From the NCBI GenBank assembly GCA_003255025.1, contig QANY01000119.1, forward strand, positions 114,424 to 178,423: a stretch of DNA of 64,000 bases, given 5' to 3'. A program made the translations under genes and the position numbers. Shown in pieces: positions 35,893-62,443 of this stretch (within the stretch, counting starts at the first letter, position 1; every line of letters begins with the position of its first letter). Source of the DNA: Datisca glomerata. Lineage: Eukaryota; Streptophyta; Magnoliopsida; Cucurbitales; Datiscaceae. The notes below the pieces were generated by a model that had not been told where the DNA came from, searched no databases, and saw only the letters and a program-made list of their open reading frames with translations.

Positions 35893-36174
35893 GATTTTTA
35901 TTCACTTTAGGTATGTCCTTCATTGGAGCCTTGCTTGCAGCATTGAATTGAAATCATGCCCAAATACTTTGCAAGTCTTACACCTCAATGGTAAACCCAT
36001 ATACTACAATTCTATTTTGGCTTTATCAATCCCATAATTTGTAAGGTCAACCTCAATATACTCTCGAAGTTCAAGATCCATGTTTATATCAATACACACC
36101 TTTATAAAGGACAACCTAAGGGCACTAGCAGTTATAGCATTAGAATAAATAGGCGTACCTAATATGCAACTGAG
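35893..36174 (-). pseudogene. LINE ORF1 fragment, array copy 1
   Basis: Matches the central part of the ORF1 copy at 40990-41280 (DUF4283 end and zinc-knuckle start) with stops. It marks the left edge of the composite array. Confidence 0.65.
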
Positions 36175-36449
36175 AATGTTAATACCTTAATATCAATGAG
36201 ATATTCAATGATTTTGGCAGCTAGTATGGATAAATCCCCTATCATATACTTTATCTTAATTAGCTTTGTTCTACTGCTATAGCTTCTCAGTAGCATTAAC
36301 CTTAGCTCTAAACACAATGAACTATCGTCCTTGCGATTACCAATCTCTACTATAATTAATTTATCTCTAAGCATAATTTTTAGATTATAGATTGATTTCT
36401 TAAGTTACAGCCAAATGGTTTACAAGGTAAACTCATAATGCTATATAGA
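36175..36449. repeat. M spacer, copy 1
   Basis: Runs from GATATTCAATGATTTTGGCAG through AAATCCCC to GCTATATAGACCC, where the CCCTAAA array begins. The short antisense frame 36159-36374 is repeated in other spacers only as fragments and is not a gene. Confidence 0.75.
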
Positions 36450-36655
36450 CCCTAAACCCTAAACCTTGAACCCTAAAACCCAAAACCCTAAAAGTCCTAA
36501 AACCCTAAAACCCTAAACCCTAAAATCCCCAAATCCTAATCCCTAACCTCTAAACCCTAAACCCTTAATCCTAAACCTAAACGTTATAAACCTAAAACCC
36601 TAAACACTAATCTCTAAACCCTAAATCCTGAACCCTAAACCCTAAACCCTAAAAG
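36450..36655. repeat. Degenerate CCCTAAA array T1
   Basis: About 200 bp of CCCTAAA units with frequent insertions of A, C and AAT. Confidence 0.95.
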
Positions 36656-36688
36656 GCTAACCAAGAGACTCTTTCCTCTTGGTTAGCC
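36655..36688. repeat. Stem-loop at the CCCTAAA/LINE junction
   Basis: Perfect 13-bp arms: GGCTAACCAAGAG at 36655-36667 and its complement at 36676-36688, with an 8-base loop. Decayed versions lie at the same junction at about 37699, 39692 and 43955. Confidence 0.8.
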
Positions 36689-36955
36689 TATTGAAATGCG
36701 TGAATTTCAAGCTTTTCAGTGGGAGGCAAATAAGGATCGAGTTCAACAATATGGTCATCCTCCTCTTCTAAGTTCTCTGGAAGGCATGTAGGAGCTTCAT
36801 TGTGATGATCACTAGGCTCATCCTCTCTACCTTTCTTGGAGACCTGAACCCATTCTTGTTTCCTCTTCTCCACTTTAGGTATGCCTTTCATTTGAGCCTT
36901 ACTTGAAACATTGAATTGAAATCATGCCCAAATACTTTGCAAGTCTTACACCTCA
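36689..36955 (-). pseudogene. LINE ORF1 C-terminal fragment, array copy 2
   Basis: Minus-strand frame (GIPKVEKRKQEWVQVSKKGR, then an acidic stretch) shared by all ORF1 copies of the array. It breaks off after about 270 bp into spacer N. Confidence 0.7.
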
Positions 36956-37384
36956 TTGGTAAATTAGTGATTGTCGATCTCCATATGGACTAGTGTGAAT
37001 ATGCAATATGTTAAACCAAATTGGGCAGTAATAATAATGATGAAATAATATAGTTAAAAGTAACTTGAGATTAAGTTGACTGATAAAGTCGTATAAGATA
37101 ACACTTACAGAGTAGCAAACTAACTTTAAATCAATGAGATATTCCATGTTGTAGCTAGTATGGATAAATCCCCTATCAATTACTTTATCTTTATCAGATT
37201 TGTTCTACCACTATAACATCTAAGTGGCATTAACATTAGCTCTAAATCACAATGACATGTCGTACTTGCGATTACCAATCTCAACATTAATTAACTTATG
37301 GCTATGCATAATTTTAGATTATAGATCAATTTCTTATATTCCAGACAAAGGGTTTACAAGGTGAGCTCACATGTCTATGCTACA
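36956..37384. repeat. N and M spacers, copy 2
   Basis: N (TGATTGTCGATCTCCATATG...) followed by M, ending CTATGCTACATATA directly before CCCTAAA. Confidence 0.75.
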
Positions 37385-37698
37385 TATACCCTAAACCCTA
37401 AACCCTGAACCCAAAATCTTAAACCCTAAACCCTAAACCATAAACCATAAAAATCCTAAAACTTTAAACCCTAAACCACAAAACCCTAAACCCTAAATCC
37501 TAAACCTAAAACCCTAAAAACCTAACCCCTAAACCCTAAAACCCTAAATCCTAAATCCTAAACCCAAAACCTTAACCCTGAACCATAAATCCTAAATATA
37601 AACTCTAAAATCCTAAAACTCTAAAACCTTAAACCCTAAAAATCTAAGACCCCAAACCCTGAACCCTAAACCCTAAATCCTAAATCCACAAACCCTAA
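37385..37698. repeat. Degenerate CCCTAAA array T2
   Basis: About 310 bp of CCCTAAA-derived units. Confidence 0.95.
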
Positions 37699-38879
37699 AA
37701 GGATAACCAAAAGACTCTTTCTTCATGGTTAGCCTCTTGATTGCCTGAATTTAAGGCTTTAGAGTGGGAGGCAAAGAAGGATCAAGCTCAACAATATGGT
37801 CATCCTCCTCTTCTAAGTTCTTTGGAAGGCATCTAGGTGCTTCATTGTGATGATCACTAGGCTCATCCTTTCTACCTTTCTTGGAGACCTGAACCCATTC
37901 TTGTTTTCTCTTCTCTACTTTAGGTATGCCCTTCATTTGAGCCTTCCTTGAAACATTGAATTGAAATCATGCCCAAATAATTTACAAGTCTTACACCTCA
38001 TTGGTAAACCTAGATACTACAATTCTATTTTAGCTTCATCAATCCCATAATCTGTAAGGTCAACCTCAATATACTTTGGAAGTTTAGGATCCATGTTTAT
38101 CTCAATACATAACTTTGCAAAGAACATCTTAATGGCACTAGCAGTCATAACATTAGCATAAATAGGTGTACATGATATGCAACATAGGCTTTTAATACAC
38201 TTTTGTGTCTAAAGGATGACAAGGATATTCCACGACTTCACCCAGATTGGAATAGTATTCAATTCTTCCTTTGAAAGCTTCATAGTAGGTGACCACTTTT
38301 TAAGAATGATAGATTCTTCCTCTTAATATTGAAACTTGAAAGAGAAAAATCCATTTTCATTCTCAGCCACTCTGTTCAAACCTCTCTTTCCCCATAGACG
38401 AATGACAACATCTATCACTAGGTTGAATGCAGTATTTCACCCCTGAAAGTGACTCGGTGTTCTCAAATTTTTTAATTCCCTCCTTCACCACAACATCATG
38501 TATCCTGTATTTACACTTTGATCTTTCGTGATATTTTCATCGAGACTTAGAAGGCTCTATTTATCCTGCAGAAGGAGAAAATGGAATGCAAGTTGCATCT
38601 TTCTAAACTAGGTTCTCGAGGTTTCCCATAATGGAAATGTACACATAATTTTCTAAAATATTCTCAGCAACCATTTTTGGGTTTTTAGATTGGAAAAAAG
38701 GGATTCCTTTCCCCCTCAATATCATAGTAGAAACCTGCGATAACATGTGAGGATTCCTTTAAGCTCAAAGAATAAAGATATTTGTTGCCTTTTGCACAGT
38801 CTTCAACAACTTCCAAAATGGGAATGAAAATAATATGGTTTACGTGTAAACCTCTATTCTTAGGAGGTGTTGTGTAATT
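37699..38879 (-). pseudogene. LINE ORF1 relic, array copy 3 (longest)
   Basis: From right to left it holds the ORF1 N-terminal part, the DUF4283-like domain (block similar to NGFFSFKFQ and KEELN-type sequence), the knuckle region and the lysine/acidic tail (37751-37936). Many stops and frameshifts are present. In plants DUF4283 with a CCHC-type knuckle is the usual ORF1 of L1-clade LINEs, an RNA-binding protein. Confidence 0.7.
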
Positions 38880-39344
38880 TCTGTATATGCTAGTGCACGT
38901 GTCGTTAACAAGTAATAAATTAGTGAGTGTCGATCTCCATAGGGACTACTATAAATATGCAATATGTTAAACCAAATTGGGCAGTAATAATAATGATGAA
39001 ATAATATAGTTAAAACTAACTTGAGATTAAGTTGACTGATAAGGTAGTATAAGATAACACTTGCAGAGTAGCAAACTAAATTTAAATAAATGAGATATTC
39101 CATGTTTTTGGCAGCTAGTATGGATAAATCCCCTATTAATTACTGTCTTTATCAGATTTGTTCTACCGCTATAACATCTAAGTAGCATTAACATTAGCTC
39201 TAAATCACAATGACATGTCGTACTTGCGATTACCAATCTCAACCTTAGTTGACTTATGGCTATGGATATTTTTAGATTATAGATCGATTTCTTATGTTCC
39301 AGACAAAGGGTTTACAAGGTGAGCTCATATATCTATGCTAGATA
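38880..39344. repeat. X, N and M spacers, copy 3
   Basis: Starts GTATATGCTAGTGCACGTGTC (X), then N and M, and ends at the CCCTAAA array. The antisense frames at 38840-39242 are spacer artefacts. Confidence 0.75.
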
Positions 39345-39692
39345 GACTCTAAACCCTAAACCCTGAACCCAAAATCTTAAACCCTAAACCCTAAACCATA
39401 AAAATCCTAAAACACTAAACCCTAAACTATAAAAACCCTAAACCCTAAATCCTAAAAACCCTAAAAATCTGAAACCTTAAACCCTAAAAACCTAACCCCT
39501 AAACCCTAAAACCCTAAATCCTAAGCCCTAAACCCAAAACCTTAACCCTGAACCATAAATCTTAAATATAAACTCTAAAACCCTAAAACCCTAAAACTCT
39601 AAAACCTTAAATTCAAAAAATCTAAGACCCGAAATCCTAAGACCCCAAATCCTAAACCCTAAACCCTAAATCCTAAATCCACGAAACCCTAA
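39345..39692. repeat. Degenerate CCCTAAA array T3
   Basis: About 350 bp of CCCTAAA-derived units. Confidence 0.95.
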
Positions 39693-39965
39693 AAGGCTAA
39701 ACAAGAGACTATTTCTTCGTGGTTAAACTCTTGACTGCTTGAATTTAAGGCTTTACAGTTGGAGGCAAAGAAGGATCAAGCTCAACAATATGTTCATCCT
39801 CCTCTTCTAAGTTCTCTGGAAGGCATCTAGGAGCTTCATTGTGATGATCACTAGGCTCATCCTCTCTACCTTTCTTGGAGACCTGAACCCATTCTTGTTT
39901 TCTCTTATCCACTTTAGGTATGCCCTTCATTTGAGCCTTCCTTGAAACATTGAAATGAAATCCAA
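39693..39965 (-). pseudogene. LINE ORF1 C-terminal fragment, array copy 4
   Basis: Repeats the acidic tail block (ending KEWVQVSKK-type sequence). It is interrupted at about 39965 by the 3' end of the next LINE copy. Confidence 0.7.
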
Positions 39966-41511
39966 TAATGTTATTTTTTTGTTGAAAGGGTAAATTTCAT
40001 AAATAAAAAAACACTACACAATTCTAGGGGCGTACACTAGGAAATACAAAGCCAAAAGAAAAACATAAAAGACACAACTAGTAAAAAAGCTTGAGCCATT
40101 TAAGTATGATAGAATCAATTAGAATAATAACCTTGACAGTTTTAATGTAGATTGCCATAATCTTTATCTACCAGGAGATGAGTTTAGAGCATAAACAAGG
40201 GTGCAAACAAATTCGAAACTAGGAGATAATCTTAGAACAATATAATGTATGAATGAATCTGAAGAAGAGACTACAATAATATAAAAAACATTTGGATCAT
40301 AAGCAACCCAAATTCTGCCTGAAGGATTTGAAAAAAAATTATGCAACAATCTTCAAGAAGGAAAGACACTATTTGTGTGGTACTGAAAATAGTTGAACTT
40401 AACCCTTGTTTCCACTAAAGCACAAAGGCCAACATTAAACAACCTACATAAACTCCTCACTTCTAAATGCTTCCTAGGCTTGTTAAAGCCTCTAACATTC
40501 CAAGCTACAATATTCATAAAATATTCATAGGTGAGGGCGTGGAAGGTCCACCACACTTCCAAGACTTCTAGCCTTAACTTTGGCAATCATCTACCTTTTC
40601 CTTTGTCTTTGCCTTGTAGTGAACTGAATGGATGAATGAGAAAGAGAAAGAGAACCCTCCTTCTAAGTTTTATCCTGGATATCTTCATGAAATTTCTATA
40701 GAACTTGAGGTTAAGAAGAGACTATTTCCTCTTGGTTAGCCTCTTGAACTACCTGAATTTCAAGCTTTTTAGCGGGAGGCAAAGAAGCATCAAGCTTAAC
40801 AATATAGTCATCCTCCTCTTCCAAGTTATCTGGATTGCATATGGGAGCTTCATTGTGATGATCACTAGGCTCAACCTCTTTGTCTTTCTTGGAGACCTGA
40901 ACCCATTCTTCTTCACTATAGGTATGTCCTTCATTTAAGCCTTCCTTGCAACATTGAATTGGTAGTCAAGCCCAAATACTTTACAAGTCCTACACCTCAT
41001 TGGTAAACCCATATGCTAATTCAATTTTGGCTTCATCAATCCCAAAATCTGCAAGGTCAACCTTAATATACTCTGCAAGTTCAGGATCCATGTTTATCCC
41101 AATACACATCATTGCAAAGGAAAGCTTATGGGCACCAACAGTCGCTGCATCATCACAAATAGGCGTACCTAATATGCAGTAGAGACTATTTATACATTTT
41201 TCTGTACAAAGGATGGCAGGGACATTCCACAACTTCACCCACATTGGAATAGTATTCAATTCTTCCTTCGAAAACTTCATAGTAGGTGACCACTCTTTAA
41301 GATCCTATTATGCACCAGGGGCCACCTTTAATGATAGACTTTTCCTCTTGAGATTGAAACTTAAAAAAATATCTATTTTCATTCTCAGCCACTCTATTAT
41401 AACCTTTCTTTCCCCACAGATGAAAGGCAGGTTTTCTCACCAAAAAATGACCCACTATGGTGTTCTCCTATTTTTGAATGCCCTCCTTCACCACATATTC
41501 TCAGTAAACTA
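39966..41511 (-). mobile_element. Deleted LINE copy: ORF1, endonuclease start and 3' end
   Basis: Read on the minus strand. ORF1 (41511-40715) has the cleanest DUF4283 block: KEELNTIPMWVKLWNVPAIL and VGAHKLSFAMMCIGINM. ORF2 start (40590-40150) reads NIVAWNVRGFNKPRKHLEVR and VGLCALVETRVK, the N-terminal part of the LINE endonuclease with its Asn and Glu motif positions. It is followed by a LINE-type 3' end (CCTAGTGTACGCCCCTAG... and A-rich ..CAACAAAAAAATAAC, 40060-39966). Reverse transcriptase is deleted. No coding potential remains. Confidence 0.78.
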
Positions 41512-41787
41512 ACTTAATATGGTTAGCAAACTAACTTATTATCATTGAGATATTCAATGGTTTTCACAACTAGTATGGATAAATCACCTATTAATTCTTT
41601 TACCTTAATCAACTTTGTTATACAGTCATAACATCTCAGTAGCATTAACCTTAGCTCTAAACCCTAATGAACGAACTTACGATTACCACTTAACTAACTT
41701 ATGTCTAAGCATAATTTCATATTATAGATTGATTGCTTATGTTCTAGCCAAAGGGTTTACAAGGTGAGCTCATATATCTATGCTACA
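41512..41787. repeat. Partial N and M spacers, copy 4
   Basis: N is shortened to its last part. M ends CTATGCTACATATA at the CCCTAAA array. Confidence 0.75.
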
Positions 41788-42330
41788 TATACCCTAAACC
41801 CTAAACGCTAAAAACCCCAAAACCCTAACACCCTAAAACCTAAAACCCGAAACCGAAACCCTAAAAATCCTAAACACTAAAACCCTAAAAACCCTAAACA
41901 CCTAATCCTAAATCCTAAGCCATAAAACCCTAAACCCTAAACCCTAAAAACCTAAACCTAAATACCCTAAACCCTAAACTTTAAAACACTAAAGCCTAAA
42001 AACCTAAACCCTAAACCATAAACCCTAAAACCTAAACCCTAAACCCTAAACAACCCTAAACCCAAAACACTAAAAATCCTAAACCCTAAAATCCAAACCA
42101 CTAAAACTCTATATCCTAAAAGCCTAAACCCTAAACCCTAAACCCTCAAACCATAAACCCTAAAACCCTAAACCCCAAATCCTAAAAAAATAAATCCTAA
42201 AATCGAAAACACTAAACCCTACCCTATACCCTAAACCCTAAACTCTAAACCGTAAACATAAACCCTAAAACCCTAAACCCATAAACCCTAAACCCTAAAA
42301 ATTCTAAATCCTAAACCTTAAACCCTAAGT
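41788..42330. repeat. Degenerate CCCTAAA array T4 (longest)
   Basis: About 540 bp of CCCTAAA-derived units. Confidence 0.95.
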
Positions 42331-42865
42331 TCAAAGAAGAAAAATCTATTCTTAGGGGGTGTTGTATGATTTGTGTATACACTAGTGCGTATATCGTTGA
42401 CAAGTAATAAAGTAGTAAGTGAGTGTTGATCTCCACGGGGACTAGTATGAATATGTCCTAAATATATTGAACAAAAGATGATTTAACTTGCAAATAGGGT
42501 AATAATAATAATGATGAATCAATATGGTTAAAACTAACTTGAGATTAAGTTAACTAATAAAGTAGTATGACATAATATTTGCAAAGTAGCACACTTACTT
42601 TATATCAATGCTATATTCAATGGTTTTGGCGGTTAGTATGTATAAATCTCCTATCAATTACTTTATCTTAATCGACTTTATTCTACTGCTATAGCATCTC
42701 AGTAGCATTAACCTTAGCTCTGAATCATAATGAACTATCATCCTTGTGATTACCAATCTCAACCTTAATTAACTTATATCTATGCATAATTTCAAATTAT
42801 AGATTGATTTCTTGAGTTCCAGCCAAAGCGTTTACATGGTGAGCTCACATGTCTATGTTGTATGA
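42331..42865. repeat. X, N and M spacers, copy 5
   Basis: Full spacer set directly after T4, with no ORF1 fragment between. M ends CTATGTTGTAT and is cut by the next block. Confidence 0.75.
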
Positions 42866-43869
42866 ATTATGTCCATAAAGTAGGGTGTAATAACTATTTA
42901 TGAGTATTGAGTTATTTCTCAGACATTTTATATTACTGATTTTAATGAATGAATGAAAAATTTTCTATTAATTTTAGTGTGTTTATAATTTACTCAAGTC
43001 TTGGAACTATTGTCTAAGTAAAAAGAGTAAAGACTGAGGGGTCTTCCAAATAAACTTTTATGAAATAGTTTAAAATGTTATTCACAGTTTTAGGATCGAC
43101 TGGACAATTGAGTCCGATTACGACTGTTAGGTTGAACTAAAAGATGCTGGTCTTGAGTCATGGGTGTGGTGACTCTAACGATTGACCTAAACATGTTGAA
43201 TAGAACAATAACAAATTAGTTTGAAATAAAGCTGTTTATCTAGCTCTAAATCTAACTGTTACACCTTATGGGTATTTTCGTAGTTACCTTAATCCTGAGA
43301 TGAATATGAAACTTGACCTAGTTAGTTACGATATTTGATACGTCAAATGAGTGAGTTTGAATTTCTGGACAATACCCCGGCTGTTAGAATCGTGATTCAA
43401 CTAGGTTGGAGTTGCGTGATTCACAGATATAGAAATTCGTGGTTAGATTGTAAAATGCAACAATATCACCTTATACTTTATTGATGAGTGTGTGAATAAA
43501 TTAAGTTGGCCAAGTACTCAATGAAATGTATCATTGAATAAGACAAGGGGAATCGTACGAGGTAATTTACTATTATATTTTTTTATCCACAGTCAATAAA
43601 AGAGTTAAGGAAATGATAACAAGAAGTGTAAAATGGTAATTTTATATTATACTCTTGTTACTGATATTCACGAAGGGTAATATGTTAAAATATTTCGTGG
43701 ACCATGAAATAAAAGTGTTTATTTACACTAACAGAAAATGTAGCGCGCATGATTCGAGAGTTGATTCGGCATCAAACCTATAGTGGAGTCGTATGATGTC
43801 AAAATTTAATAGGTCGGGAATTTATAGAGATTAATTCATCAAGTATTTGAATCCTTTCTCTCTTTCTCT
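42866..43869. other. About 1-kb block between M and CCCTAAA
   Basis: Unrelated to the other modules and seen once. It lies exactly at the M/CCCTAAA junction and ends in CTTTCTCTCTTTCTCTC. No domain or LTR ends were identified. Confidence 0.6.
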
Positions 43870-43955
43870 CTAAACCCTAAACCCTAAAATACTAAACCAA
43901 ACACGAAACCCTAAGGCCTAAAACTCTAAACCTTAAAACCCTAAACCCTAAAAGG
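43870..43955. repeat. Short CCCTAAA array T5
   Basis: About 85 bp of degenerate CCCTAAA units between the 1-kb block and ORF1. Confidence 0.9.
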
Positions 43956-44934
43956 CTAACCAATAGACTCTTTCCAATTCGTTAGCCTCTTGAACTGCCT
44001 AAATTTCAAGCTTTTTAGTGGGAGGAAAAAAAGATCAAGCTCAACAATATGGTCATCCTCTTCTACCAAGTTCTCTGGAAGGAAAATGGGAGCCTCATTG
44101 TGATGATCACTATGCTTAACCTCTCTAGCTTTCTTGGAGACCTGAACCCATTCCTGTTTTCTCTTGTCCACTTTAGGTATGTCCTTAATTTGAGCCTTCC
44201 TTGTAGCATTGAATTGAAACATGCCCAAATACTTTGCAAGTCTTCTATCTCACCGGTAAACCCAGATACTACAATTCTATTTTGGCTTCATAAATCACAT
44301 AATCTGTAAGGTCAACCTCAATATACTCTAGAAGTTCATGATCCATATGTATCTCAATACACACCTTTGTAAAAGACATCTTAAGGGCACCAGCAGTCAC
44401 AACAATAACGCAAATAGGTGTACCTAATATGCAACAGAGACTGTTAATACCTTTTTGTGTCCAATTGAAATAGTATTCAATTCTTCCTTGAAAAGCTTCA
44501 TAGTAGGTGACCATTCTTTAAGAATGAGTGGCGACCTTTAATTGAATTTTACTCTTGAGATTGAAACTTGAAAAAGAAAATTCAATTTTCATTCTCAGCC
44601 ACTCTGTTCAAACCTCTCTTTCCCCATAGACGAAATGCAACATCTCTCACTAGGTTGAAGGCAAATTTTCTCTCTTAAAAATGATCCACTATGGTGTTCT
44701 CCCATTTTTGAATGCCCTCCTTCACCACATCATCATGTATCCTGCATTCAGCAGCCAATTTTGGGTTTTAGATGATGAGGGTAAAGAAGGGAATTCCTCT
44801 TCCCCCTCAATTTAACCAAAGAAAACCGCGACAGGATGTGAGTTTTCCTCTAAGCTAAAAAAAGATCTTCCTTGTCTTATGCAGAGTCTTCAACACCTTC
44901 CCAAACGAGAATGGAAAAAATAAGATTTACATCT
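43956..44934 (-). pseudogene. LINE ORF1 relic, array copy 6
   Basis: Same order as copy 3. The C-terminal frame (44228-43956) includes IPKVDKRKQEWVQVSKKARE. The DUF4283 part (44514-44269) includes GALKMSFTKVCIEIHMDHEL. Stops and indels are present. Confidence 0.72.
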
Positions 44935-45284
44935 AAACCTCTATTCTCAAGGGGTGTTATATGATTTGTGTATCGTTAACAAGCAATAAAGTAGTAAGTG
45001 AGTTTTGATCTCCACGGAGATTGGTGTAAATATGTAATATATTGAACTTAAGTCGATTTAACTTGCAAATAGGGCGGTAATAATAATGATGGATCAATAT
45101 GGTTAAAACTAACTTGAGATTAAGATGACTAATAAAGTTGTATGAGATAACACTTGCAGAGTAGCAAACTAAATTAATATCAATGAGATGTCCAATGGTT
45201 TTGGCAGCTAGTACTAACAAATCCCCCATCGATTTCTTAAGTTCCAGGCAAAGGTCAACAAGGTCAGCCCATATGTCTGTGTTA
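44935..45284. repeat. N and shortened M spacers, copy 6
   Basis: N is nearly full. M has lost its middle and retains only its first words and its end at CCCTAAA. Confidence 0.7.
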
Positions 45285-45672
45285 CATATACCCTAAATCC
45301 TAAAACCCTAAACCCTAAAAACCCTAAAACCCTAAATCCTAAACTCTAAACCCTAAACATTTAACACTAAATCCTAAACCCTATAAAATCTAAACCCTAA
45401 AAAACCTAAACCCTAATCCCTATACCCTAAACATCTAAACCCTAAAATCCTAAACCCAAAACCCAAAATCCTAAACACTAAAACCCTAGACCCTCCCTAA
45501 AACCTAAACGCTAAACCCTAAAACCCTAAAATCCTAAACCCAAAACACTAAACCCTAAACCTTAAAACCCTAACCCTAAAGCCTGAAACCCTAAACCCTA
45601 AACCTTAAACCCTAAACTCTAAACCCTAAACCCTAAACCCTAAAAACCAAAAATCTTAAACCCTAAACCTTA
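45285..45672. repeat. Degenerate CCCTAAA array T6
   Basis: About 390 bp of CCCTAAA-derived units. Confidence 0.95.
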
Positions 45673-45867
45673 ATCAGCGTTTGTTATACTACCATAGCAT
45701 CTCAATAGCATTAACCTTAGCACTAAAGCACAATGACTATCATCCTTACGATTACAAATCTCAACCGTAATTAACCTATGTCTAAGAATAATTTCAAATT
45801 ATAGATTGATTTCTTAATTTTGAGCCAAAGGGTTTACAAGGTGATCTCATTTGTCTATGCTGCATAT
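45673..45867. repeat. M spacer, copy 7
   Basis: M alone, ending CTATGCTGCATATACCC. Two CCCTAAA units follow. Confidence 0.75.
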
Positions 45868-45880
45868 ACCCTAAACCCTA

Positions 45881-45935
<55 letters not shown>

Positions 45936-45938
45936 CCA
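45868..45938. repeat. CCCTAAA units running into a CT microsatellite
   Basis: Two CCCTAAA units (45868-45882) pass directly into about 55 bp of CT repeat. In the other array copies the same junction continues into CCCTAAA. Confidence 0.85.
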
Positions 45939-46034
45939 AGAAAGATTGATTGAATTTTAAAAAAATTGGAGCGTGAAGTGCAATTAGATCTTGGGGGGTG
46001 TCGAGATTAATATTACCAGTTTAAATAATTAGAG

Positions 46035-46562
46035 TAATTTATGACTTTTTTGTAAAGACTTTTAGTAAAGATTTAGATAAAACAAGAAATTGATATACCG
46101 TCTCTTGTGTCTTATGTTATCCCTTCTTAGATTATCCATTTTTATCCATTTTTTGTTTGCTGTTCAAGAATTCTTGTTTAGGCAGTTCATACCATCTATA
46201 CATGATGTTTTGATCTAAGATTTCAATTCTTCCATGTTTTAGCAGTAGTATATTGTTCCATGGAGCGAAGGACCAAAATAAGGAATGGGAAACCATAGCT
46301 GATTAATAGGGATTAAGTGGAACCAAATTGAATGGGTGGTAGAGTCATTATTTTCTACCTTAGCTCAATGGAACAGTATACTACTGCTAAAACATGGAAG
46401 AATTGTTAGATGAAAACATTACATATGAATGGTATGAATTGACTAAACAAGAATTATTGAACATCGAAAAAAATGGATATTCTAAGAAAGGATAACATAA
46501 GATATAAATGACATTATATCAAAATCTTAACCAAAAATCTTTACGAAAAAAATCATAAATTA
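46035..46562. repeat. Foldback: 200-230 bp inverted repeat with about 90-100 bp loop
   Basis: The left arm (about 46035-46265) and right arm (about 46360-46562) are reverse complements with mismatches. Examples are CCATGTTTTAGCAGTAGTAT (46231 region) against ATACTACTGCTAAAACATGG (46384 region). The outer ends TAATTTATGAC and its complement also pair. No coding sequence is present. It resembles a foldback/MITE-type element or a hairpin RNA source. Confidence 0.82.
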
Positions 46563-46644
46563 ACTTATGTCTAACCATAATTTCAAATTATAGATTGATT
46601 TCTTAAATTCTAACCAAAGGGTGATCTCATATGTCTATGCTACA
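46563..46644. repeat. M spacer end, copy 8
   Basis: The last about 80 bp of M directly follows the foldback and ends CTATGCTACATATACC before CCCTAAA. Confidence 0.75.
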
Positions 46645-46938
46645 TATACCTTAAAAACCTAACCCCTAAAACCCTAAAACCCTAAACCATAAAACCTAAA
46701 ACTCTAGACCCTAAAACCCTAAACCCTAGACTCTTAAAACTCTAACCCTAAAACCCTAAACGCTAAAACCCAAAACCCTAAACCCTAAACTCTAAATCCT
46801 AAGCCCTAAACCCTAAAAACCCAAAACTCAAAACCCAAAACCTTAAACCCTAAACCCTAAAAACCCTAAAATCCTAAAACCCTAAATCCTAAACTTTAAA
46901 TCTTGAACCCTAAGCCCTAAACTATAAACCCTAAAACC
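46645..46938. repeat. Degenerate CCCTAAA array T8
   Basis: About 290 bp of CCCTAAA-derived units. Confidence 0.95.
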
Positions 46939-48240
46939 CAGAGTTGGAGAATGATAAGAATGTCCAGGGCTGGAAAAAAAAACACAAGAATCCCTAAGCA
47001 TGTCCAACCAGGGAGCATTAACCAAGACTCTATCAATCTTGGACATTATGGTGCCCTGGCCTGGATAATGATTCCACCAAGTAAGAAGCAGGCCAGTGAA
47101 TCTAAGATCTAAAACTTCAATATCAGCAATACACTCAGTAATGTACCTCATACCTTCATCCAAACCCATAGAACCACCAACTTGCTCATTGGGATGTAAA
47201 GTTTCATTGAAATCTCCCAAGAAAGCCTAAGGAGGCTAGAAAGCAAAAGGAGGCTAGTGGAAAACAATATTGATCTCTCTAAACATCTTCCATCATCTTG
47301 ATCTCCCAGGAACTGAGTTTAGAGTACAAAAAAAGGTGCAAACAAAGTTCGCACTAAGAGACAATATGTGAACCATACAATGTATGAATTGATCTGAAGA
47401 AGTGACCACAATAATATAAAAAACATTTGGATCATAAGCAATCGTAATTCTGCCTGAAGGATCTGAAGAATAATTATGCAACAACCTCCAAGAAGGAAAG
47501 ACACTATTTGTGATGTGCTGAAAATGCTTAACCAAAGCACAAAGACTAGCATTACACTCCTAACTTCTGAATGCTTCCTAGGCTTATTAAATCCTCTAAC
47601 ATTCTTAGCCACAATATTCATAAAATAGTTATAGGTTAGGGCTTGGAAGGCCCACAACACTTCCAGGACTTCTAGCTTTAACTTTGGCACACATCATCCT
47701 TTTCCTTTGTCTTTGCCTTGCGCTAAGTTGAAAGGATGAAGGAGAAAGAGAAAGAGAACCCTCCTTCTGAATTTCATCCTGGATCTATTCATGTATAATC
47801 TCTAGAACTTATGGTTAAGAAGAGATATTTTCTTTTGGTTACCCTCTTGAACTATTTGAATTTCAAGTTTTTTTATTGAGAGTCAAAGAAGGATTAAGCT
47901 CAATAATATGCTCATCATCCTCTTCCAAGTTATCTAGAAGGCATATGGGAGCTTCATTGTGATGATCACTAGGCTCAACCTTAGGTATGTCCTTGAATTG
48001 AGCCTTCCTTGTAGCATTGAATTGGTAGTCATGCCTAAATACTTTGCAAGTCTTACACCTCATTGGTAAACCCAAACACTACAATTCTATTTTGGCTTCA
48101 TCAAACCCATAATATGTAAGCTCAAGCTCAATATACTCTACAAGTTTGGATCCATGTTTATTTCAACAAACACCTTTGCAAAGGACATCAAAAGGGCACC
48201 AGTCGTCAGTGCATCATATAAATAGGTGTACCTAATATGA
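46939..48240 (-). mobile_element. Deleted LINE copy: ORF1 and endonuclease domain
   Basis: On the minus strand ORF1 tail (48240-47815) is followed by the endonuclease start near 47610 (NIVAKNVRGFNKPRKHSEVR). After a gap comes the later endonuclease block at 47220-46940: MGDFNETLHPNEQVGGSMG and LTWWNHYPGQG, the GDFN motif of apurinic-type LINE endonucleases. It then runs straight into CCCTAAA array T8. The other end stops at the CT array. Confidence 0.75.
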
Positions 48241-48440
48241 AATATCCTTCTTCCTCCCTCTTTCTCACTCTCTTCCCTCTCTCTCTCCTTCTCTCTCACC
48301 CTCTCTCCCTCTCTCTCTCTTATCTCTTATCCCCCCTCTCTCTCTCCCTCTCACACTCTCTCTTCTCTCTCTCCCGCTCTATCTCTCACTCTCTCTCACT
48401 CTCTCTCACACTCTCCATCTCTCTCACCCTCTTTCCCCTA

Positions 48441-48493
<53 letters not shown>

Positions 48494-48767
48494 GCTCTCT
48501 TTCTCTTTTCTCCCCCATTCCCTATTTCTGCCTCTCTCTTCAATCTCTCTCCCTCACTCGCTCTCTCTCCCCCTCTATCCCTCTATCTCTCCCTCTCTCT
48601 CTCTCGCTTGCTCACTCTCTCACTCCCTCTCTCGCACACTCTTCCTCTCCCTCTCTTTTACTTTCTCTCTCTCCCTCTCTCTCACTCTCTCTCTCCCTCT
48701 CTCTCACTCTCTCTCTGTCTCACACTCACTCTTTCTCCCTTTATCACACTCACTCTTTCTCCCTTTA

Positions 48768-48799
<32 letters not shown>

Positions 48800-49000
48800 N
48801 NNNNNNNNNNNNNNNNNNNNNNNNNNNNNNNNNNNNNNNNNNNNNNNNNNNNNNNNNNNNNNNNNNNNNNNNNNNNNNNNNNNNNNNNNNNNNNNNNNNN
48901 NNNNNNNNNNNNNNNNNNNNNNNNNNNNNNNNNNNNNNNNNNNNNNNNNNNNNNNNNNNNNNNNNNNNNNNNNNNNNNNNNNNNNNNNNNNNNNNNNNNN
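48800..49000. other. Assembly gap
   Basis: About 200 N, entered from a CACACA tract on the left and leaving into CT repeat on the right. The true length is unknown. Confidence 0.98.
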
Positions 49001-50578
49001 CTCTCTCCCACTCACTCTCCCCCTCTCGCTCTCTCATTCTCTCACTCTCCCCCCTCTCACCCTCTCATGCTCTATCACTCTTCCACCCTCTCTCTCGCTC
49101 TCTCTCACTCTCTCCCCTACTCTCCCCCCTCTCTCACCTTCTCTTCCACGCCCTTTCTCTCTCTCCTTCTCTCTCCCCCTTTCACTCTCTCTCACTTATT
49201 CCATCTCTCTCTCTTACTCACTCCATCTCTCTCTCTCTCTCTCTCTCCCCCTCTCTCGCCATCTTTCCGCTGCTCTCTTTCTATCTCTCTTTCTTGCAAT
49301 CTTCTCCACCATCTTTCTATCTCTCCCTCTCTCTTTTATCTCTCTCTCCCTCTCTCACTCTCTCTCTCTTTCAATGTGTGTGTCTCTCTCTCTTTCTATC
49401 TCTCTGTCGGTCTCTCCCTCTCGATCACACAATCTCTTCCCCTCTCTCTTCCTCTCTCTCCTCTCTCTCTGGCTTTCTCACTCACTAAATCCTCCATTTC
49501 ACACTCTTCCCCTCCCTTTTGCTCTCTTTTAACCTCTATGTCTCTCTATCTCTCTCCGTCCTCTCTCCCCCCTCTCGCACTGTCTCAACCTCACTCTCAC
49601 TCCCTCTATCATGTGCTCTCTCTTTCGCTCCCTCTCACGCTCTCTCACGCTCTATCCCTCTCTTTTCCTCTTTCTTACTCTCTCTCACTCTTTCACTCTC
49701 TCCCTCTCTCTCGCCTCTCTTCCCCGCTCTCTCTCACTCTCTTCTCCCCCATCTCTCTCTTTCTCTCTCTATCTCCCACTCTCTCACTCTCTTTGGCTCT
49801 TTCAATGTCAATCTCTCTCTATCTCTCACTCTCCCCTCTCTCTCTTTCCCCCTCTTGGTCTCTTCCTCTCGCTCTCTCTCTATCCCCCCATCTTGCTCTC
49901 TCTCTCTGTCCCCCCATCTTGCTCTCTCTCTCTCTCCCTCTCACTCTCTCTCATTTTTTATCTCACACACTCTCTCCCTTTCTCTTTCCCCCGCTCACTC
50001 TCTATTCCTCTCTCTTTCCCCCCCTCTCTCTAAATATGTCTCTCTCTCTCTTTCTCTCTCGTTGTCTCCCCCTGCTCTCACTTACCCCCCGCCCGTTCTC
50101 TCTCTCTCCCCTCTGTCACCCACTCTCTTTGTCACTCACTCAGTCTCTCTTTCACTATCTCTCTCCCTCTATCTCTCTATGTGTCTCTCTCTCACTCCCT
50201 CTCTCTCCCCTACTCGCCCTCTTCCTCTCCCCCTCTCACACTCTCTCCCTCTCTCTCTCTTTCCCCCGCTCTCTCTCCCTCTCTCCCTCTCAATTTAACT
50301 CTCGCTCTCTCTCCTCCTCTCACTCACCCTTTCTCTCCCTCTCACTCTCTCCCATATTTTATCTCACTTTCTCTCCCTCCCTCGCTATACCCCTCTCTCC
50401 CGCACTCTCTCTCTATCTCAAATTTTCTCTCCCCTCTCGCTCACTCTTTCTCTCCATCTCACTCTCCCTCATTTTTTATCTCGCTCTCTTTCTCTGTCTC
50501 TCTCTCCTCTCACTCCCTTCTCTCTTTCCATTCTCTCTCTATCTTTCTCTCTCTCTCCCCCTTTGTGTCACCCAGTTG

Positions 50579-50611
<33 letters not shown>

Positions 50612-51300
50612 GTTCACCCTCTCACTCACTCTGTCCCTCTCCCTCCCTCTTTCCCACCCTCTCTCTACATTCCCCTCTCTATCTCTCTCTCTCTTACTCC
50701 CACTCTCTCCCCTTCTCTCCCTCTCTCTATCCCCGTTCTCTCTCTCTCGCTCGCTCGCTCTCTCTCTCGCTTGCTCACTTTCTCTCCCTCCCTCCTCACC
50801 CTCTCTCCCTCTATCTTATCTCACTCTTTCCCTCCCCCCGCTCTCTATCTCTCCCTCTCTCTCCCCCTCCCTCTCTTTCCCCGCTCTCTCTCCCCCTTTC
50901 ACTCTCTCTCGCTCTCTCTCTCTTTCTCTCTCTCTCTCGCTCTCTCTCTCTTTCTCTCTCTCTCCATCTTTCTTCCTCTCTATCTCCTCCTTCTCTCCCT
51001 CCCATTCTCTCTCTCTCTCTGTCTGTCTCTCTCACTCCCTCTCCTCACCTCTCACTCTCTCTCACGCTATCTCCCCCGCTATCTCTCTCACTTTCTCTTT
51101 CTATCTCTCTCTCTCTCCTTTTCTCTTCCTCTCTTCCTCTCCTTCTCTCTATCTCTCTCTCTCCCTTTCTCTCCCCCTCCTCTCTCTATCTCTCTCTTTC
51201 ACTCTCTTACTCCCTCTCTCTCTCACCTTCTCGCTCTCTATCTCTTCCTCTCTCACTCTCTATCTCTTGCACCCTACCCGCTCTCTCCCCCTCTATCTTC

Positions 51301-51623
51301 TGAAGGAATCAATGCAGCAGAAAATACACAATCTTGAATTATTCGAGAAACAACCTAATCAAAGGATTAGGAAAAAATACCTCTTGATGCGTGATGATTG
51401 AAAATTGAACCTCATAGTCTTCCTAGTTATTCCTCGAACTGTCAAACAAAATCACGAGTTGGTGAGAACTCGAAGAACACCAAAACGAAAAAATGACTCA
51501 TGTCTTTTTCTTCTTTAACAAACCAAAAACTTCAACCATAGCATATTAGTTATGAAAAACACTATGCCTCAAAAAACCAAGAAGAAGACGAGCGAGTTTT
51601 ATATATATATATAAACTGCTAAT
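51301..51623. other. Non-repetitive island inside the CT array
   Basis: About 320 bp of ordinary AT-rich sequence, ending with a TA run (51600-51613). No domain was recognised. It interrupts an otherwise continuous array. Confidence 0.85.
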
Positions 51624-52045
51624 ATCTATCTCACTCGCTCCCCCTCTGTCCCCCTCACTTCACACACTCTCTCTATCTTACTCAAACTCTCTCTTCTCTC
51701 CCTCACACACACACTCTCTCCCCCCTCTCTCTTTCTCTCTATCTCTCTCTCTCACTCTCTTGTTCTATCTCTCTAATTCTCTTTCTTTTCCTCTCTCTCC
51801 CTCTCCCCTCTCTCTTTCTCGCTCGTTATCTCCTTCTCTCTCTCACTCTCTCTCTCTTTCTCGCTTTCTCTCTATGTCTTTCTTTCTCACCCTCTCTCCC
51901 TCATTCTCTCCGTATCTTTCTCTCTCTCTCATCCCCTCTCTCGCTCTCTCGTTCTCCCCCCTCTCTTTCTCTCACACTCTCTCTCGTATGTCTCTTTCTC
52001 ACTCTCTCTCATCCCCTCTCTCGCTCTCTTGTTCTCCCCTACCCA

Positions 52046-52082
<37 letters not shown>

Positions 52083-52528
52083 CTCGCTCTCTCTCACTAT
52101 GTCTCTCTATCTCCTTATCTGTCTCTCTCCCACTCCCTGTCACTTTCACACTCTCTTTCTCTCACTTCCACTCTCCATCTCCCTCTCCCTTTCACTTTGT
52201 CGCTCTCTCTCTATGTCTTTCTTTCTCACCCTCTCTCCCTCTCTCTTCGTATCTCTCTCTCTCACTCTCTCTCTCGTCTATCTCTCCCTTTCTCTCTCCC
52301 TCTCCCCCCCTCTCTCGGTGTCTCCCTCTCTCTTTTTCTCTCTCTCTCTCTCTCACTCACTCTCTCTATGACTTTCTTTCTCTCCCACTCTCCCTCCCTC
52401 TCTCCCTATCTCACTCTCTCGTGCTCTCTCTATCTCGCTCGCTCCCCCTCTGTCCCCCTCACTTTCACACACACACTCTCTCTCTTACTCAAACTCTCTC
52501 TTCTCTCCCTCACACACACTCTCTCTCC

Positions 52529-52565
<37 letters not shown>

Positions 52566-52762
52566 TCTGTTTCTCGCTCGTTATCTCCTTCTCTCTCTCA
52601 CTCTCTCTCTCTTTCTTTCTCACCCTATCTCCCTCATTCTCTCCGTATCTTTCTCTCTCACTCACTCTCTCTCTCGTCTGTCTCTCCCTCACACTCTCTC
52701 ATCCCCTCTCTCGCTCTCTCGTTCTCCCCCCTCTCTTTCTCTCACACTCTCTCTCGTTCTCT
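51624..52762. repeat. Higher-order duplication within the CT array (about 0.8-kb offset)
   Basis: The succession CTCGCTCCCCCTCTGTCCCC, then ACTCAAACTCTCTC, CTCGCTCGTTATCTCC, CATTCTCTCCGTATCTTTC and CGTTCTCCCCCCTCTC appears from about 51634 to 52000. It appears again in the same order from about 52434 to 52762. Confidence 0.8.
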
Positions 52763-53662
52763 ATCTCTCTCTCGGTCTCTCTCCCTCTCTCTCCCTATCT
52801 CTCTCTCACTCTCTCTCATCCGTCTCTCCGCCACTCTCTTTGTCGCTCTCACTCTCTGCCTCTTTCACTCCCTTGCTATCTCTCTCTCTCTCTTTATCTT
52901 ACTCGCACCCCCTCTCTCGTTATCTCTTTGTCTCCATCTCTCTCTATCTTTCGCTCTATCTATCTTTCTCGCTCTCTCTCTGTCTATGCATTTCTCTCTC
53001 TCTATATATATATGTCACTCTATCTCCTTATCTCTCTCTCCCTCCCTCTTGCTCTATCTCTAAGTTTCTCTCTCCCTCTCTCTCCCTCTCACTTTCTCTC
53101 TCTCTCTCTCTCTCTCTCCCATTCACTTTTTCACTCTCTCTCCCTCCCTCTCCCTCTCTTTCTCTCCCTTCCTCCCTCTCTTTGTCTCGCTCGCTATCTC
53201 CCTCTCTCTCTCCCCTCTCTCTGTCTCGCCCATTCTCCATCTCCCTCCCCCTTTCACTTTGCCGCTCTCTCTCTTTCTCGCTCTCTCTCTCCTTCCCTCC
53301 CTCTCTCTGTGTCGCTCGTAATCTCCCCCTCTCTCTCCCCTCTGTCTCTTTGTCTCGCTTACTCCCCCTCTCGCCCTCTATCTCGCTAACTCACCATCTC
53401 AATTTGTCTCTCTCTGTCTATGTCACTCCCTCTCTCTCGCTAGGTCTCTTTCTCTTTAGCACTCTCTATGTGTGTTTCTCTCTCTCTCTCACTCTCTCTC
53501 TCTCATTCGCTCTCACTCTCTCTATCTCTCTCTTCCTCTGTAGCAAGTTGCCTCTCACTCTCCCCCCCTCTATCTCTCGGTCTCTCTCCCACTCTCATTC
53601 TCACAAAAACACACACACATTCTATATATGTCCCTCTCTCTCCTTATCTCTCTCTCTCCTTA

Positions 53663-53699
<37 letters not shown>

Positions 53700-54161
53700 C
53701 TATCTCCTTATCTCTCTCCCCCTCCCTCTCGCTCTCACACTCTCCCGTCCCTCTCTCTAAGTTTCTCTCTCCCTCTCTCCCTTTCCCTCTCACTTTCACT
53801 CTCCTTCTCTCTCCCATTCACTTATTCACTCTCTCATTCTCTCTCTCTCTCCCTCCCTCCCTCTCTCTGTCTCGCTCGCTGCCCCCTCTCGATCTCTCTC
53901 TGGCCCTCTCGCTCTAGCTCGTTCTCTATCTCTCTCTCGGTCTCTCTCCCTCTCTCTCCCTATCTCTCTCTCACTCTCTCTCATCCGTCTCTCCGCCACT
54001 CTCTTTGTCTCTCTCACTCTCTCTGCCTCTTTCACTCCCTTGCTATCTCTCTCTCTCTCTTTATCTTACTCGCACCCCATCTCTCGTTATCTCTTTGTCT
54101 CCATCTCTCTCTCTCTCTCGCTCTATCTATCTTTCTCGCTCTCTCTCTCTGTCTACGCATT

Positions 54162-54200
<39 letters not shown>

Positions 54201-55166
54201 GTCACTATATCTCCTTATCTCTCTCCCTCCCTCTTGCTCTCTCTCTAAGTTTCTCTCTCCCTCTCTCTCTCTCCCATTCACTTTTTCGCTCTCTCTCCCT
54301 CCCTCTCCCTCTCTTTCTCTCCCTTCTTCCCTCTCCCCGTCTCGCTCACTATCTCCCTCTCTCTCTCCCCTCTCTCTCTGCCTCAGTCACTCCCCTCTCA
54401 CTCTCTATATCGCTCGCTCCCCCTCTCACTCTCTCTCTATGTCACTCTCTCTCGCTATCTCTCTCACCCTGTCTTTCTTTCTCACCCTCTTTCCCTCTCT
54501 CCCTCTCCCTCTCTCTCTCACTCTCACTTTTCTGTCTCTCCCTCACTCTCTCTCTCATCCCCTCTCTCTCTCATTCGCTCCCTCTCTCTGTCTCTCTCTC
54601 TATCTATCTCTCACGACCTCTCTTTCTGTGATTGTATCTCACTCTCTATGTCTTTCTTTCTCACCCTCTCTCCCCCTCTCTCTCCCACACTCTCTCACTC
54701 TCTCTCTCACTCTCTCTCGTTTGTTTCTCCCTCACTCTCTCTCTCATCCCCTCTCTCACTCTCTCTCTCTCATCCCCTCTCTCACTCTCTCGTTCGCTCC
54801 CTCTCTCTCTATCTCTCTGGCCCTCTCTTTTTGCGATTGTATCTCTCTTTATGTCTCTCTATCTCCTTCTCTCTCTCTCTCTCTCGCTCGCTCCCTCTCG
54901 CTCTCACACACACACACTTTGTCTCTCTCTCTCTCCCTTTCACCATCTCCCTCTCTCTTTCACTTTGTCTCTCTCTCTCTCGCTCTCTCTCTCCTTCCCT
55001 CCCTCCCCTCTATCTCGCTCGCAATCTCCCTCTCTCTATCCCCTCTGTCTCTTTGTCATGCTTACTTCCCCTCTCGCCCTCTATCTCGCTCACTCCCCCT
55101 ATCACTTAGTCTCTCTCTCTCTCTATGTCACTCCCTCTCTCTCACTAGGTCTCTTTCTCTCTATCA

Positions 55167-55206
<40 letters not shown>

Positions 55207-57360: not shown

Positions 57361-57460
57361 CACTCTCCCTCTCTCTTCTCTCTCACTCTCACTCTCACTG
57401 TCTCTCTCTCACTCTCCCTCTCTCTTCTCTCTCACTCTCACTCTCACTGTCTCTCTCCCT
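57361..57460. repeat. Local tandem duplication in the CT array
   Basis: A unit of about 54-57 bp ending CTCACTCTCACTCTCACTGT is present twice in a row. Confidence 0.75.
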
Positions 57461-61075: not shown

Positions 61076-61230
61076 CTCTATTTCTCTCACTCTCTCACTC
61101 TCTCACTCTCTTGCTCACACTCTCTCTCCCTCTCTATCTCCATCTCTATCTATTTCTCTCACTCTCTCACTCTCTCACTCTCTTGCTCACACTCTCTCTC
61201 CCTCTCTATCTCCATCTCTATCTATGCCTT
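61076..61230. repeat. About 80-bp local tandem duplication in the CT array
   Basis: The stretch TCTTGCTCACACTCTCTCTC ... CTATCTCCATCTCTATCTAT is present twice, second copy starting at about 61150. Confidence 0.78.

Positions 61231-62408: not shown

Positions 62409-62443
<35 letters not shown>

What the first reader, a model, noticed from the sequence alone, without database searches (positions are those of the whole stretch)
35893..48240. Composite LINE ORF1 / telomere-motif repeat unit amplified about seven times
A LINE ORF1 fragment, spacer modules and a degenerate CCCTAAA array recur in the same order and orientation over 12 kb. Interstitial CCCTAAA arrays and LINE relics are each common, but a regular alternation of both is not what random LINE insertion gives. 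Either one LINE-plus-telomere unit was amplified by unequal exchange, or a LINE lineage repeatedly joined TTTAGGG repeats. Seen: module order, orientation, motif content. Inferred: mechanism.
Basis: partly seen in the sequence, partly recalled or inferred. Interest (0 to 1): 0.75.

Follow-up and report, generated by a model that had tools for sequence, protein, structure and literature searches.

The report
Dead LINE fused to telomere-motif satellite
In a plant genome, a broken-off copy of a jumping gene became welded to a stretch of chromosome-end-like repeats, and the welded unit was then copied hundreds of times as a satellite DNA; the window holds one old patch of about seven such units.

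Summary
Window 35894-48245 is a head-to-tail array of about seven units on the - strand: T (degenerate TTTAGGG), M (spacer, about 500 bp), 5'-truncated L1-type LINE, then T again. It belongs to a genome-wide family: the T-M junction occurs at 407 places and a LINE-relic-to-T junction at 502 places in the window's 678-Mb assembly, control 0 for each. Two sister LINEs away from the arrays show that M is not LINE sequence and that the LINE in the units starts, truncated, at one point. An in-frame TAG in ORF1 is shared by 44 of 55 copies. LINE copies with reverse transcriptase at 83% identity or more were found at 4 loci, all on array-bearing contigs (40 of 463 candidates scored). So one dead LINE-M-T fusion was most likely amplified as DNA; a mobile LINE did not join telomere repeats again and again. 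LINE-to-T joins arose at about four LINE positions, each then copied; how (deletion, or telomere capture at breaks) is open. T arrays have mostly lost register and one window unit looks recombinant across T. An assembly artefact is unlikely.

The parts
35894..36188 (-). L1: LINE ORF1 fragment, leftmost unit, cut at 35894
   Evidence: 82-87% identical to L5, L3, L6, L7 in local alignments
36183..36445 (-). M1: spacer M (partial)
   Evidence: 82-84% to M2-M5; more distant from M2/M3 than its neighbour L2 is from L3/L4
36446..36655 (-). T1: degenerate TTTAGGG array
   Evidence: shared T-M junction at 36445/36446
36656..36963 (-). L2: LINE ORF1 fragment ending at junction a
36960..37384 (-). M2: spacer M
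   Evidence: 94% to M3
37385..37700 (-). T2: degenerate TTTAGGG array
   Evidence: in register with T3, z 15.1 against unit shuffles
37701..38511 (-). L3: LINE ORF1 region ending at junction a
   Evidence: shared TAG stop
38512..38866 (-). X3: N-terminal ORF1 part of the LINE (the last 12-19 nt of M as drawn belong to it)
   Evidence: homologous to two sister LINEs from one point on
38853..39342 (-). M3: spacer M
39343..39694 (-). T3: degenerate TTTAGGG array
39695..39962 (-). L4: LINE ORF1 fragment ending at junction a
   Evidence: 93% to L3; p-distance 0.042 to a copy on contig C159
39963..40154 (-). E: tail resembling a plant LINE 3' end, with a run of seven A
   Evidence: sequence; the LINE-3'-end assignment is recalled, not tested; in the DNA held its only strong match is the same locus
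40155..41496 (-). L5: LINE ORF1 (40716-41496) and start of ORF2 (40155-40715)
   Evidence: DUF4283 E 9.5e-13 at 40993-41304; ORF2 start read by eye
41524..41787 (-). M4: spacer M (partial)
41788..42329 (-). T4: degenerate TTTAGGG array, the longest
42330..42344 (-). LINE relic (X part) between M5 and T4: junction c
   Evidence: same join at 502 places genome-wide; homology to LINE ORF1
42345..42863 (-). M5: spacer M, full
42864..43869 (.). 1-kb segment between M5 and T5; also near composite units in L038 (79%) and L039 (84%)
   Evidence: identity unresolved, perhaps an inserted mobile element
43870..43953 (-). T5: short degenerate TTTAGGG array
43954..44748 (-). L6: LINE ORF1 ending at junction a
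44749..44939 (-). X6: N-terminal ORF1 part of the LINE
44940..45286 (-). M6: spacer M with internal deletion
45287..45676 (-). T6: degenerate TTTAGGG array
45677..45865 (-). M7: spacer M, cut and joined to T6
45866..45883 (-). T8: two-repeat remnant of a T array, beside (TC)n 45884-45935
46035..46562 (.). foldback (palindromic) insertion beside M8
   Evidence: matches its own reverse complement, 71% over 569 columns
46558..46644 (-). M8: spacer M, cut by the foldback insertion
46645..46940 (-). T7: degenerate TTTAGGG array
46941..48245 (-). L7: LINE ORF1 (47820-48245) and ORF2 endonuclease part (46941-47819, by eye), ending at junction b'
   Evidence: same join in L038

Best explanation
The region is a decayed local array of a composite satellite DNA. 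A 5'-truncated, dead L1-type LINE came to lie directly after spacer M, itself preceded by a telomere-like array T, giving a unit T-M-LINE (the fixed junctions are shown; the order of the founding events is inferred). T sequence was later joined to the LINE at about four positions: in the N-terminal ORF1 part (c), at the end of ORF1 (a) and at two points in the endonuclease region (b, b'). Each join is found at several loci, so it was copied (shown). Repeats of different length therefore share one start (T-M) and differ in where the LINE stops. The units spread head to tail and to many contigs as DNA, not by retrotransposition (inferred from shared lesions and from not finding the LINE elsewhere). 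T acted as a stretch where units recombine (inferred from one mosaic unit and loss of register). The spread was a burst; copies have since drifted to about 17% divergence without local homogenisation. No function is indicated.
For: T-M junction: 407 places with up to 3 mismatches, reversed control 0; junction c 502, control 0; junction b 3, control 0. In 20 fetched 10-kb stretches plus the window the BLAST module hits of each locus all point one way (0 opposite); T precedes M in 46 of 50 testable cases, X precedes a complete LINE-ORF1 start in 39 of 42, T follows a LINE ORF1 end in 42 of 60 (19 of the 20 stretches were chosen for ORF1 matches). Two sister LINEs (C587; C453 at 4.0 Mb) match 5 of 5 tested units from the same point on (within 5 bases) and before it match each other, not M. 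TAG inside ORF1 in 44 of 55 copies, none with GAG (duplicate query row removed). LINE-bearing and LINE-poor M separate on the tree with 2 label changes against a shuffled mean of 11.8, 0 of 500 shuffles as low. Reverse-transcriptase matches at 83% or more at 4 loci, all on array contigs. Window block L3-T2-M2 against L4-T3-M3: K2P 0.070 and 0.064, T2/T3 z 15.1. Mosaic: L2 against L3 differ at 24 of 307 sites, M1 against M2 at 43 of 258, Fisher p 0.0016; control pair p 0.75. Two loci about 218 kb apart on C574 carry an insertion that starts and ends at the same places in M (ends read, not aligned in full).
Against: The tree test does not reject M1+M2+M3 as one clade (p-AU 0.24); the junction-a LINE pieces L2, L3, L4, L6 are not a clade on the tree, though not rejected as one (p-AU 0.31). 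One LINE-poor M (L020) falls among LINE-bearing ones, and the tree is unrooted. 20 of 21 T pairs show weak or no shared order (z -0.8 to 4.0), so common descent of every T array is not proven by T itself. A lone unit M-X-LINE without T, ending at junction a in unrelated sequence, exists on C723 (L047); mobility of such a unit was not excluded. The long copy L040 is not followed by T in the stretch held. The founder's LINE 3' end and target-site duplications were not found. Within-contig copies are no closer than between-contig ones, so local unequal exchange alone is not enough. Genome searches score 40 of 110 to 1362 candidates, so LINE copies elsewhere may have been missed.
Confidence: 0.8

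Rival explanations
1. Telomere-targeted retrotransposition: the LINE carries T-M as its own 5' end and inserts into telomere-like arrays, building head-to-tail arrays as MoTeR elements do in the blast fungus.
For: Constant 5' start (T-M) with variable 3' ends; head-to-tail array with telomere-like tracts between units, as described for MoTeR (PMC7367193, Introduction). A lone unit outside an array exists (L047).
Against: M is absent from two sister LINEs, whose own 5' region is different and shared between them. The LINE is 5'-truncated and most copies carry a common stop. No poly(A) run is seen at junctions a, b, b', c (by eye). Copies with reverse transcriptase are few and lie on array contigs.
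Confidence: 0.06
2. Break-and-heal cycles: chromosome ends broke inside the LINE, telomeric repeats were added to the broken 3' end, and the end then copied a T-M-LINE unit from elsewhere through T homology; arrays are fossil chromosome ends or healed breaks.
For: The LINE-T joins have the strand order that telomerase addition would give (LINE sense 3' end followed by TTTAGGG), and b, b' and c lie at short T-like overlaps such as TTGAG, CTG, CTTAG (by eye, not tested against chance). There are several distinct joins but one T-M junction.
Against: Deletion between a LINE and the next T in a tandem array gives the same strand order and overlaps. Joins are few (four types) and mostly inherited. 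Chromosomal position of the arrays is unknown; array orientation differs between contig starts (C59 and C608).
Confidence: 0.2
3. Independent LINE insertions into pre-existing telomere-like arrays, with no common unit.
For: LINE pieces differ in length and interior deletions.
Against: Junctions at the same positions across contigs, shared TAG, fixed truncation point.
Confidence: 0.01
4. Assembly artefact.
For: Long repeats and a CT-rich tract with a gap lie next to it.
Against: Window copies differ by 6-23%, the gap is outside the array, and the same order recurs on seven other contigs.
Confidence: 0.02

Closest known systems
Interstitial telomeric-like repeats of seed plants (review PMC8621592; 12 passages seen) and clustered, degenerate ITS interspersed with other repeats (review PMC9498494; 12 passages seen)
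   Same: Degenerate telomere-motif arrays inside chromosomes, in clusters, mixed with other repeats, with satellite-like amplification proposed.
   Different: Here T is a fixed part of a unit with spacer M and a LINE fragment, with the same joins at hundreds of places. No such LINE unit was described in the passages seen.
MoTeR telomeric retrotransposons of Magnaporthe (PMC7367193, abstract and Introduction read)
   Same: Non-LTR elements head to tail, separated by telomere repeats; a shorter form (MoTeR2) shares the 5' part and end; telomere-like sequence at one end of the element.
   Different: MoTeR1 codes for a reverse transcriptase with a restriction-like endonuclease and is thought to target telomeres; here the LINE is L1-type, dead and truncated, and M is foreign to it.
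Plant L1-type LINEs with a DUF4283 ORF1
   Same: An ORF1 piece matches DUF4283; ORF2 endonuclease and reverse transcriptase pieces recognised by eye.
   Different: No copy examined in the arrays looks able to move; the arrays behave as tandem DNA.
Yeast Y' elements with internal TG tracts (recalled)
   Same: Subtelomeric unit amplified head to tail through telomere-like tracts.
   Different: Recalled only; no Y'-like gene was looked for here, and the chromosome position of the arrays is unknown.

Membership tests
Satellite DNA (tandem head-to-tail units) | units in one orientation in tandem at several loci | tested here: met
   0 opposite module hits in 20 fetched stretches plus the window, each taken in its own orientation; C608 array over about 57 kb with interruptions
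Satellite DNA (tandem head-to-tail units) | ongoing homogenisation within an array | tested here: not met
   mean p-distance for LINE pieces 0.178 within and 0.168 between contigs; nearest neighbour on the same contig 11 of 62 (M: 0.159, 0.162, 11 of 39)
Interstitial telomeric-like repeats | tandem telomere motif away from the chromosome end | tested here: inconclusive
   motif met, flanked on both sides by other sequence in a 282-kb contig; chromosome position unknown
L1-type plant LINE | ORF1 with DUF4283 and ORF2 with endonuclease and reverse transcriptase | tested here: inconclusive
   DUF4283 E 9.5e-13; the ORF2 pieces tried gave no Pfam match and were assigned by eye; reverse transcriptase read by eye in L040 and L043
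Telomere-specific LINE (MoTeR, TRAS, SART) | telomere-like sequence is part of the mobile element | tested here: not met
   T-M absent upstream of two sister LINEs
Telomere-specific LINE (MoTeR, TRAS, SART) | element able to transpose into telomere repeats | not testable with these tools
   shared stop and truncation speak against it; no mobility assay possible

The most novel reading that the evidence does not exclude
The LINE-to-T joins are scars of repeated chromosome breakage: ends broken inside one LINE were capped with telomeric repeats and then extended by copying T-M-LINE units through telomere-motif homology, so that a dead LINE drove a Y'-like or MoTeR-like amplification of chromosome ends without any retrotransposition, and its short LINE-poor form grew into a major satellite of the genome.
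Probability: 0.18. Interest if true: 0.7.

Novelty: new variant of a known kind. Interest (0 to 1): 0.5.

Why it matters
It shows a satellite in the making with its steps still legible: a single dead transposon copy fused to a spacer and a telomere-motif array, discrete joins that create units of different length, and a short form that became common (junction c at 502 places against b at 3; a was not counted genome-wide). It gives a way to test whether telomere-like tracts inside chromosomes promote amplification, and it warns that a FISH signal with a telomere probe in such a plant may come from composite satellite and not from fused chromosome ends.

Tried and rejected
Rejected: M as the LINE's own 5' leader (it looked so from the arrays alone, because M and X nearly always precede ORF1; two sister LINEs showed otherwise). 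Rejected: a T-M satellite first and the LINE later as a separate passenger, because the LINE-poor T-M units examined carry LINE pieces at junction c. The 22-nt tail alone reaches its score in 1 of 1000 shuffles of the sister LINE, so this rests also on its close match to the X pieces of the units, read by eye. Tried without gain: homologues of the ORF1 piece (none); paper searches for a plant unit of LINE plus telomere repeat (no such unit in the titles and abstract starts listed; 3 papers opened); the anchored-end test of T arrays, whose shuffles move the common end motif and so favour the M side.

Dates were not computed beyond divergence; about 17% between copies would mean very roughly 7-14 million years at substitution rates that I recall for plants.

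The count of junction a in the genome did not complete. In the DNA held (26 loci records and the window) it has 40 matches with up to 5 mismatches, reversed control 0. In that call T-M has 78 (control 1), c 25, b 5 and b' 2 (controls 0); some loci overlap slightly, so one T-M site counts twice, at least four c matches fall inside X, where the homologous parent sequence lies, and two of the b matches lie in the T-rich C59 stretch and are not in the stricter genome search.
Full report
What is there. The finding describes a LINE ORF1 fragment, spacers and a degenerate CCCTAAA array recurring over 12 kb. This is so. Of 121 CCCTAAA words in the 64-kb window, 116 fall between 36450 and 46929; TTTAGGG on the same strand occurs 3 times, none of them in the array. 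Self-comparison gives one set of modules, all on the - strand. Read in LINE sense, from high to low coordinates: L7 48245-46941, T7 46940-46645, M8 46644-46558, a foldback insertion, T8 45883-45866, M7 45865-45677, T6 45676-45287, M6 and X6 45286-44749, L6 44748-43954, T5 43953-43870, a 1-kb segment, M5 42863-42345, T4 42329-41788, M4 41787-41524, L5 41496-40155, a tail 40154-39963, L4 39962-39695, T3 39694-39343, M3 and X3 39342-38512, L3 38511-37701, T2 37700-37385, M2 37384-36960, L2 36963-36656, T1 36655-36446, M1 36445-36183, L1 36188-35894. That is seven LINE pieces, seven T arrays of 84 to 542 bp plus an 18-bp remnant, and eight M pieces. Perfect TTTAGGG covers 33-43% of each T array. 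One of ten translated pieces matches a Pfam family above its cut-off: DUF4283, E 9.5e-13; a second matches it weakly, E 0.032; the other eight match nothing. ORF2 pieces were recognised by eye.

Shared junctions in the window. T meets M at the same place in seven of eight cases; at the eighth, T5, a 1-kb segment lies between. LINE meets T at one position (junction a, end of ORF1) in four units and at another (b', endonuclease part) in one; M meets T through a short LINE relic (junction c) in one and by a cut seen only here (M7/T6) in one. K2P distances: M2-M3 0.064 and L3-L4 0.070; T2 and T3 keep their order of variants (z 15.1 against unit shuffles); so L3-T2-M2 and L4-T3-M3 are a duplicated block. 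The other 20 of 21 T pairs keep little order (z -0.8 to 4.0). L2 is close to L3 and L4 (0.083, 0.092) while M1, beyond T1, is 0.188 and 0.197 from M2 and M3; the difference is significant (p 0.0016 and 0.004) and the control pair shows none (p 0.75). This fits an exchange inside T1, though the tree of M does not reject M1 with M2 and M3 as a clade (p-AU 0.24). On the LINE tree L1, L2, L3, L4 and L6 group against L5 and L7 (support 90/93); the four junction-a pieces alone are not a clade there but are not rejected as one (p-AU 0.31).

The genome. The window lies in a 678-Mb assembly of 1358 contigs at C14:114424-178423. A translated piece of a gene at 28.6 kb is most like TSO1-like CXC proteins, best match 88% over 75% of the query in Hibiscus syriacus (120 of 311 listed, most without a name); the plant is not named. 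ORF1 matches cluster on C608, C1001, C574, C453, C159, C358 and C14, with one each on C948 and C723 (40 of 110 candidates scored). M has 1362 first-look candidates, 40 scored, with many of the listed matches on C744, C608 and C237 (with a shorter M 1200 candidates). Junction T-M: 407 places, control 0. Junction c: 502, control 0. Junction b: 3, control 0. Junction a: not answered. I fetched 20 stretches of 10 kb, 19 of them chosen because they hold ORF1 matches and one (C59) for its telomere motifs, so their module content is not a random sample. In them and the window the BLAST module matches of each locus share one orientation; T precedes 46 of 50 testable M starts, X precedes 39 of 42 complete ORF1 starts, T follows 42 of 60 ORF1 ends, M is followed by X in 39 and by T in 13 of 55. 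The first 10 kb of C59 hold T, M and short X pieces without ORF1. L047 on C723 is a lone M-X-ORF1 unit without T: it starts inside M after an ATCT/CT tract and stops at junction a in unrelated sequence.

What is LINE and what is not. A reverse-transcriptase piece of a longer copy (L040) finds 4 loci at 83% identity or more, all on contigs that hold arrays, then two loci at 73-79% (C587; C453 at 4.0 Mb), then matches at 64-72% and one 82-base piece at 76% (40 of 463 candidates scored). I fetched 1.2 kb of the 5' part of each of the two. Five of five tested units match both from the same point on (within 5 bases), 12 to 19 nt before the end of M as I had drawn it, through X into ORF1. Before that point the two sister LINEs match each other (82%) and not M. 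So X is LINE, M is not, and the LINE in the units is cut at its 5' end, as LINE insertions often are (general knowledge). The tail at junction c matches the sister LINE over 18 of 22 bases (1 of 1000 shuffles as good), and lies where X has its counterpart: the LINE-poor T-M units also descend from the fusion.

Dead before spreading. An in-frame TAG between the DUF4283 part and a zinc-knuckle-like motif of ORF1 (motif by eye) is present in 44 of 55 copies; the other 11 have other codons, none GAG, the codon that I would expect from plant LINEs (recalled). The longer copies L040 and L043 carry it too. M of LINE-bearing and LINE-poor units separate on an unrooted tree with two label changes, one LINE-poor M (L020) lying among the others. 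LINE pieces differ by 0.178 within and 0.168 between contigs, M by 0.159 and 0.162: a burst followed by drift, not continuing homogenisation. Two loci about 218 kb apart on C574 carry an insertion bounded at the same places in M (ends read, not aligned in full), which suggests copying of larger blocks.

Mechanism. Shown: common junctions, common stop, fixed truncation, one block duplication in the window. Inferred: amplification at the DNA level, with T as an exchange site. Open: how T came to follow the LINE at four positions. At b, b' and c the LINE has a few T-like bases at the join (by eye), as expected both for deletion by short homology in a tandem array and for addition of telomeric repeats to a broken end. 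I prefer deletion, with break-and-heal at about one in five.

Comparison. Degenerate interstitial telomere repeats in clusters with other repeats are known in plants (passages of PMC8621592 and PMC9498494). MoTeR elements of the blast fungus form head-to-tail arrays separated by telomere repeats and carry telomere-like sequence at one end (PMC7367193, Introduction). The present case works like neither: the LINE is dead and L1-type and M is foreign to it. In the searches made (titles and abstract starts seen) I found no plant satellite whose unit joins a LINE ORF1 to a telomere-motif array; most subscription papers are not held. Verdict: a new variant of a known kind, well supported as a common-descent satellite, moderate interest.

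Noticed in passing
48246-63976: About 15 kb of degenerate CT-rich sequence directly beside the composite array, with a 201-N gap at 48800-49000 and a non-CT island near 51300-51640. CT or ATCT tracts also border composite units in L038, L042 and L047 and T8 at 45884-45935.
   Followed up: partly
46035-46562: Foldback element that matches its own reverse complement (71% over 569 columns), sitting in an M module.
   Followed up: partly
42864-43869: 1-kb segment, also found near composite units in L038 (79%) and L039 (84%, other relative orientation); perhaps a solo LTR or other mobile element.
   Followed up: partly
39963-40154: Tail like a plant LINE 3' end with a short A run, between two LINE ORF1 pieces; no other strong match in the DNA held.
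   Followed up: partly
L006 (G000:C24:860318-860576): Perfect interstitial array of about 37 CCCTAAA repeats in the interior of a 1.9-Mb contig, unlike the degenerate T arrays; perhaps a recent insertion.
   Followed up: no
G000:C59:3013-77149: Telomere-motif hits change strand between about 48 and 59 kb, so arrays may also meet in opposite orientation.
   Followed up: no
L039 3079 and L041 6902: Similar insertion (begins TGTTGGAAT) at the same base of M in two loci about 218 kb apart on C574.
   Followed up: partly
L047 2827-4522 (G000:C723): Lone M-X-ORF1 unit without T, starting inside M after an ATCT/CT tract and stopping at junction a in unrelated sequence.
   Followed up: partly
26150-31235: Gene of the tesmin/TSO1-like CXC family on the + strand, about 4.7 kb from the array (family from the piece at 28575-29054; extent by open frames only).
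   Followed up: partly
4316-5311; 12540-12694; 15888-16037; 20598-20843: Other tandem repeats: a 139-bp unit, and a 33-bp GC-rich unit recurring at three places.
   Followed up: no
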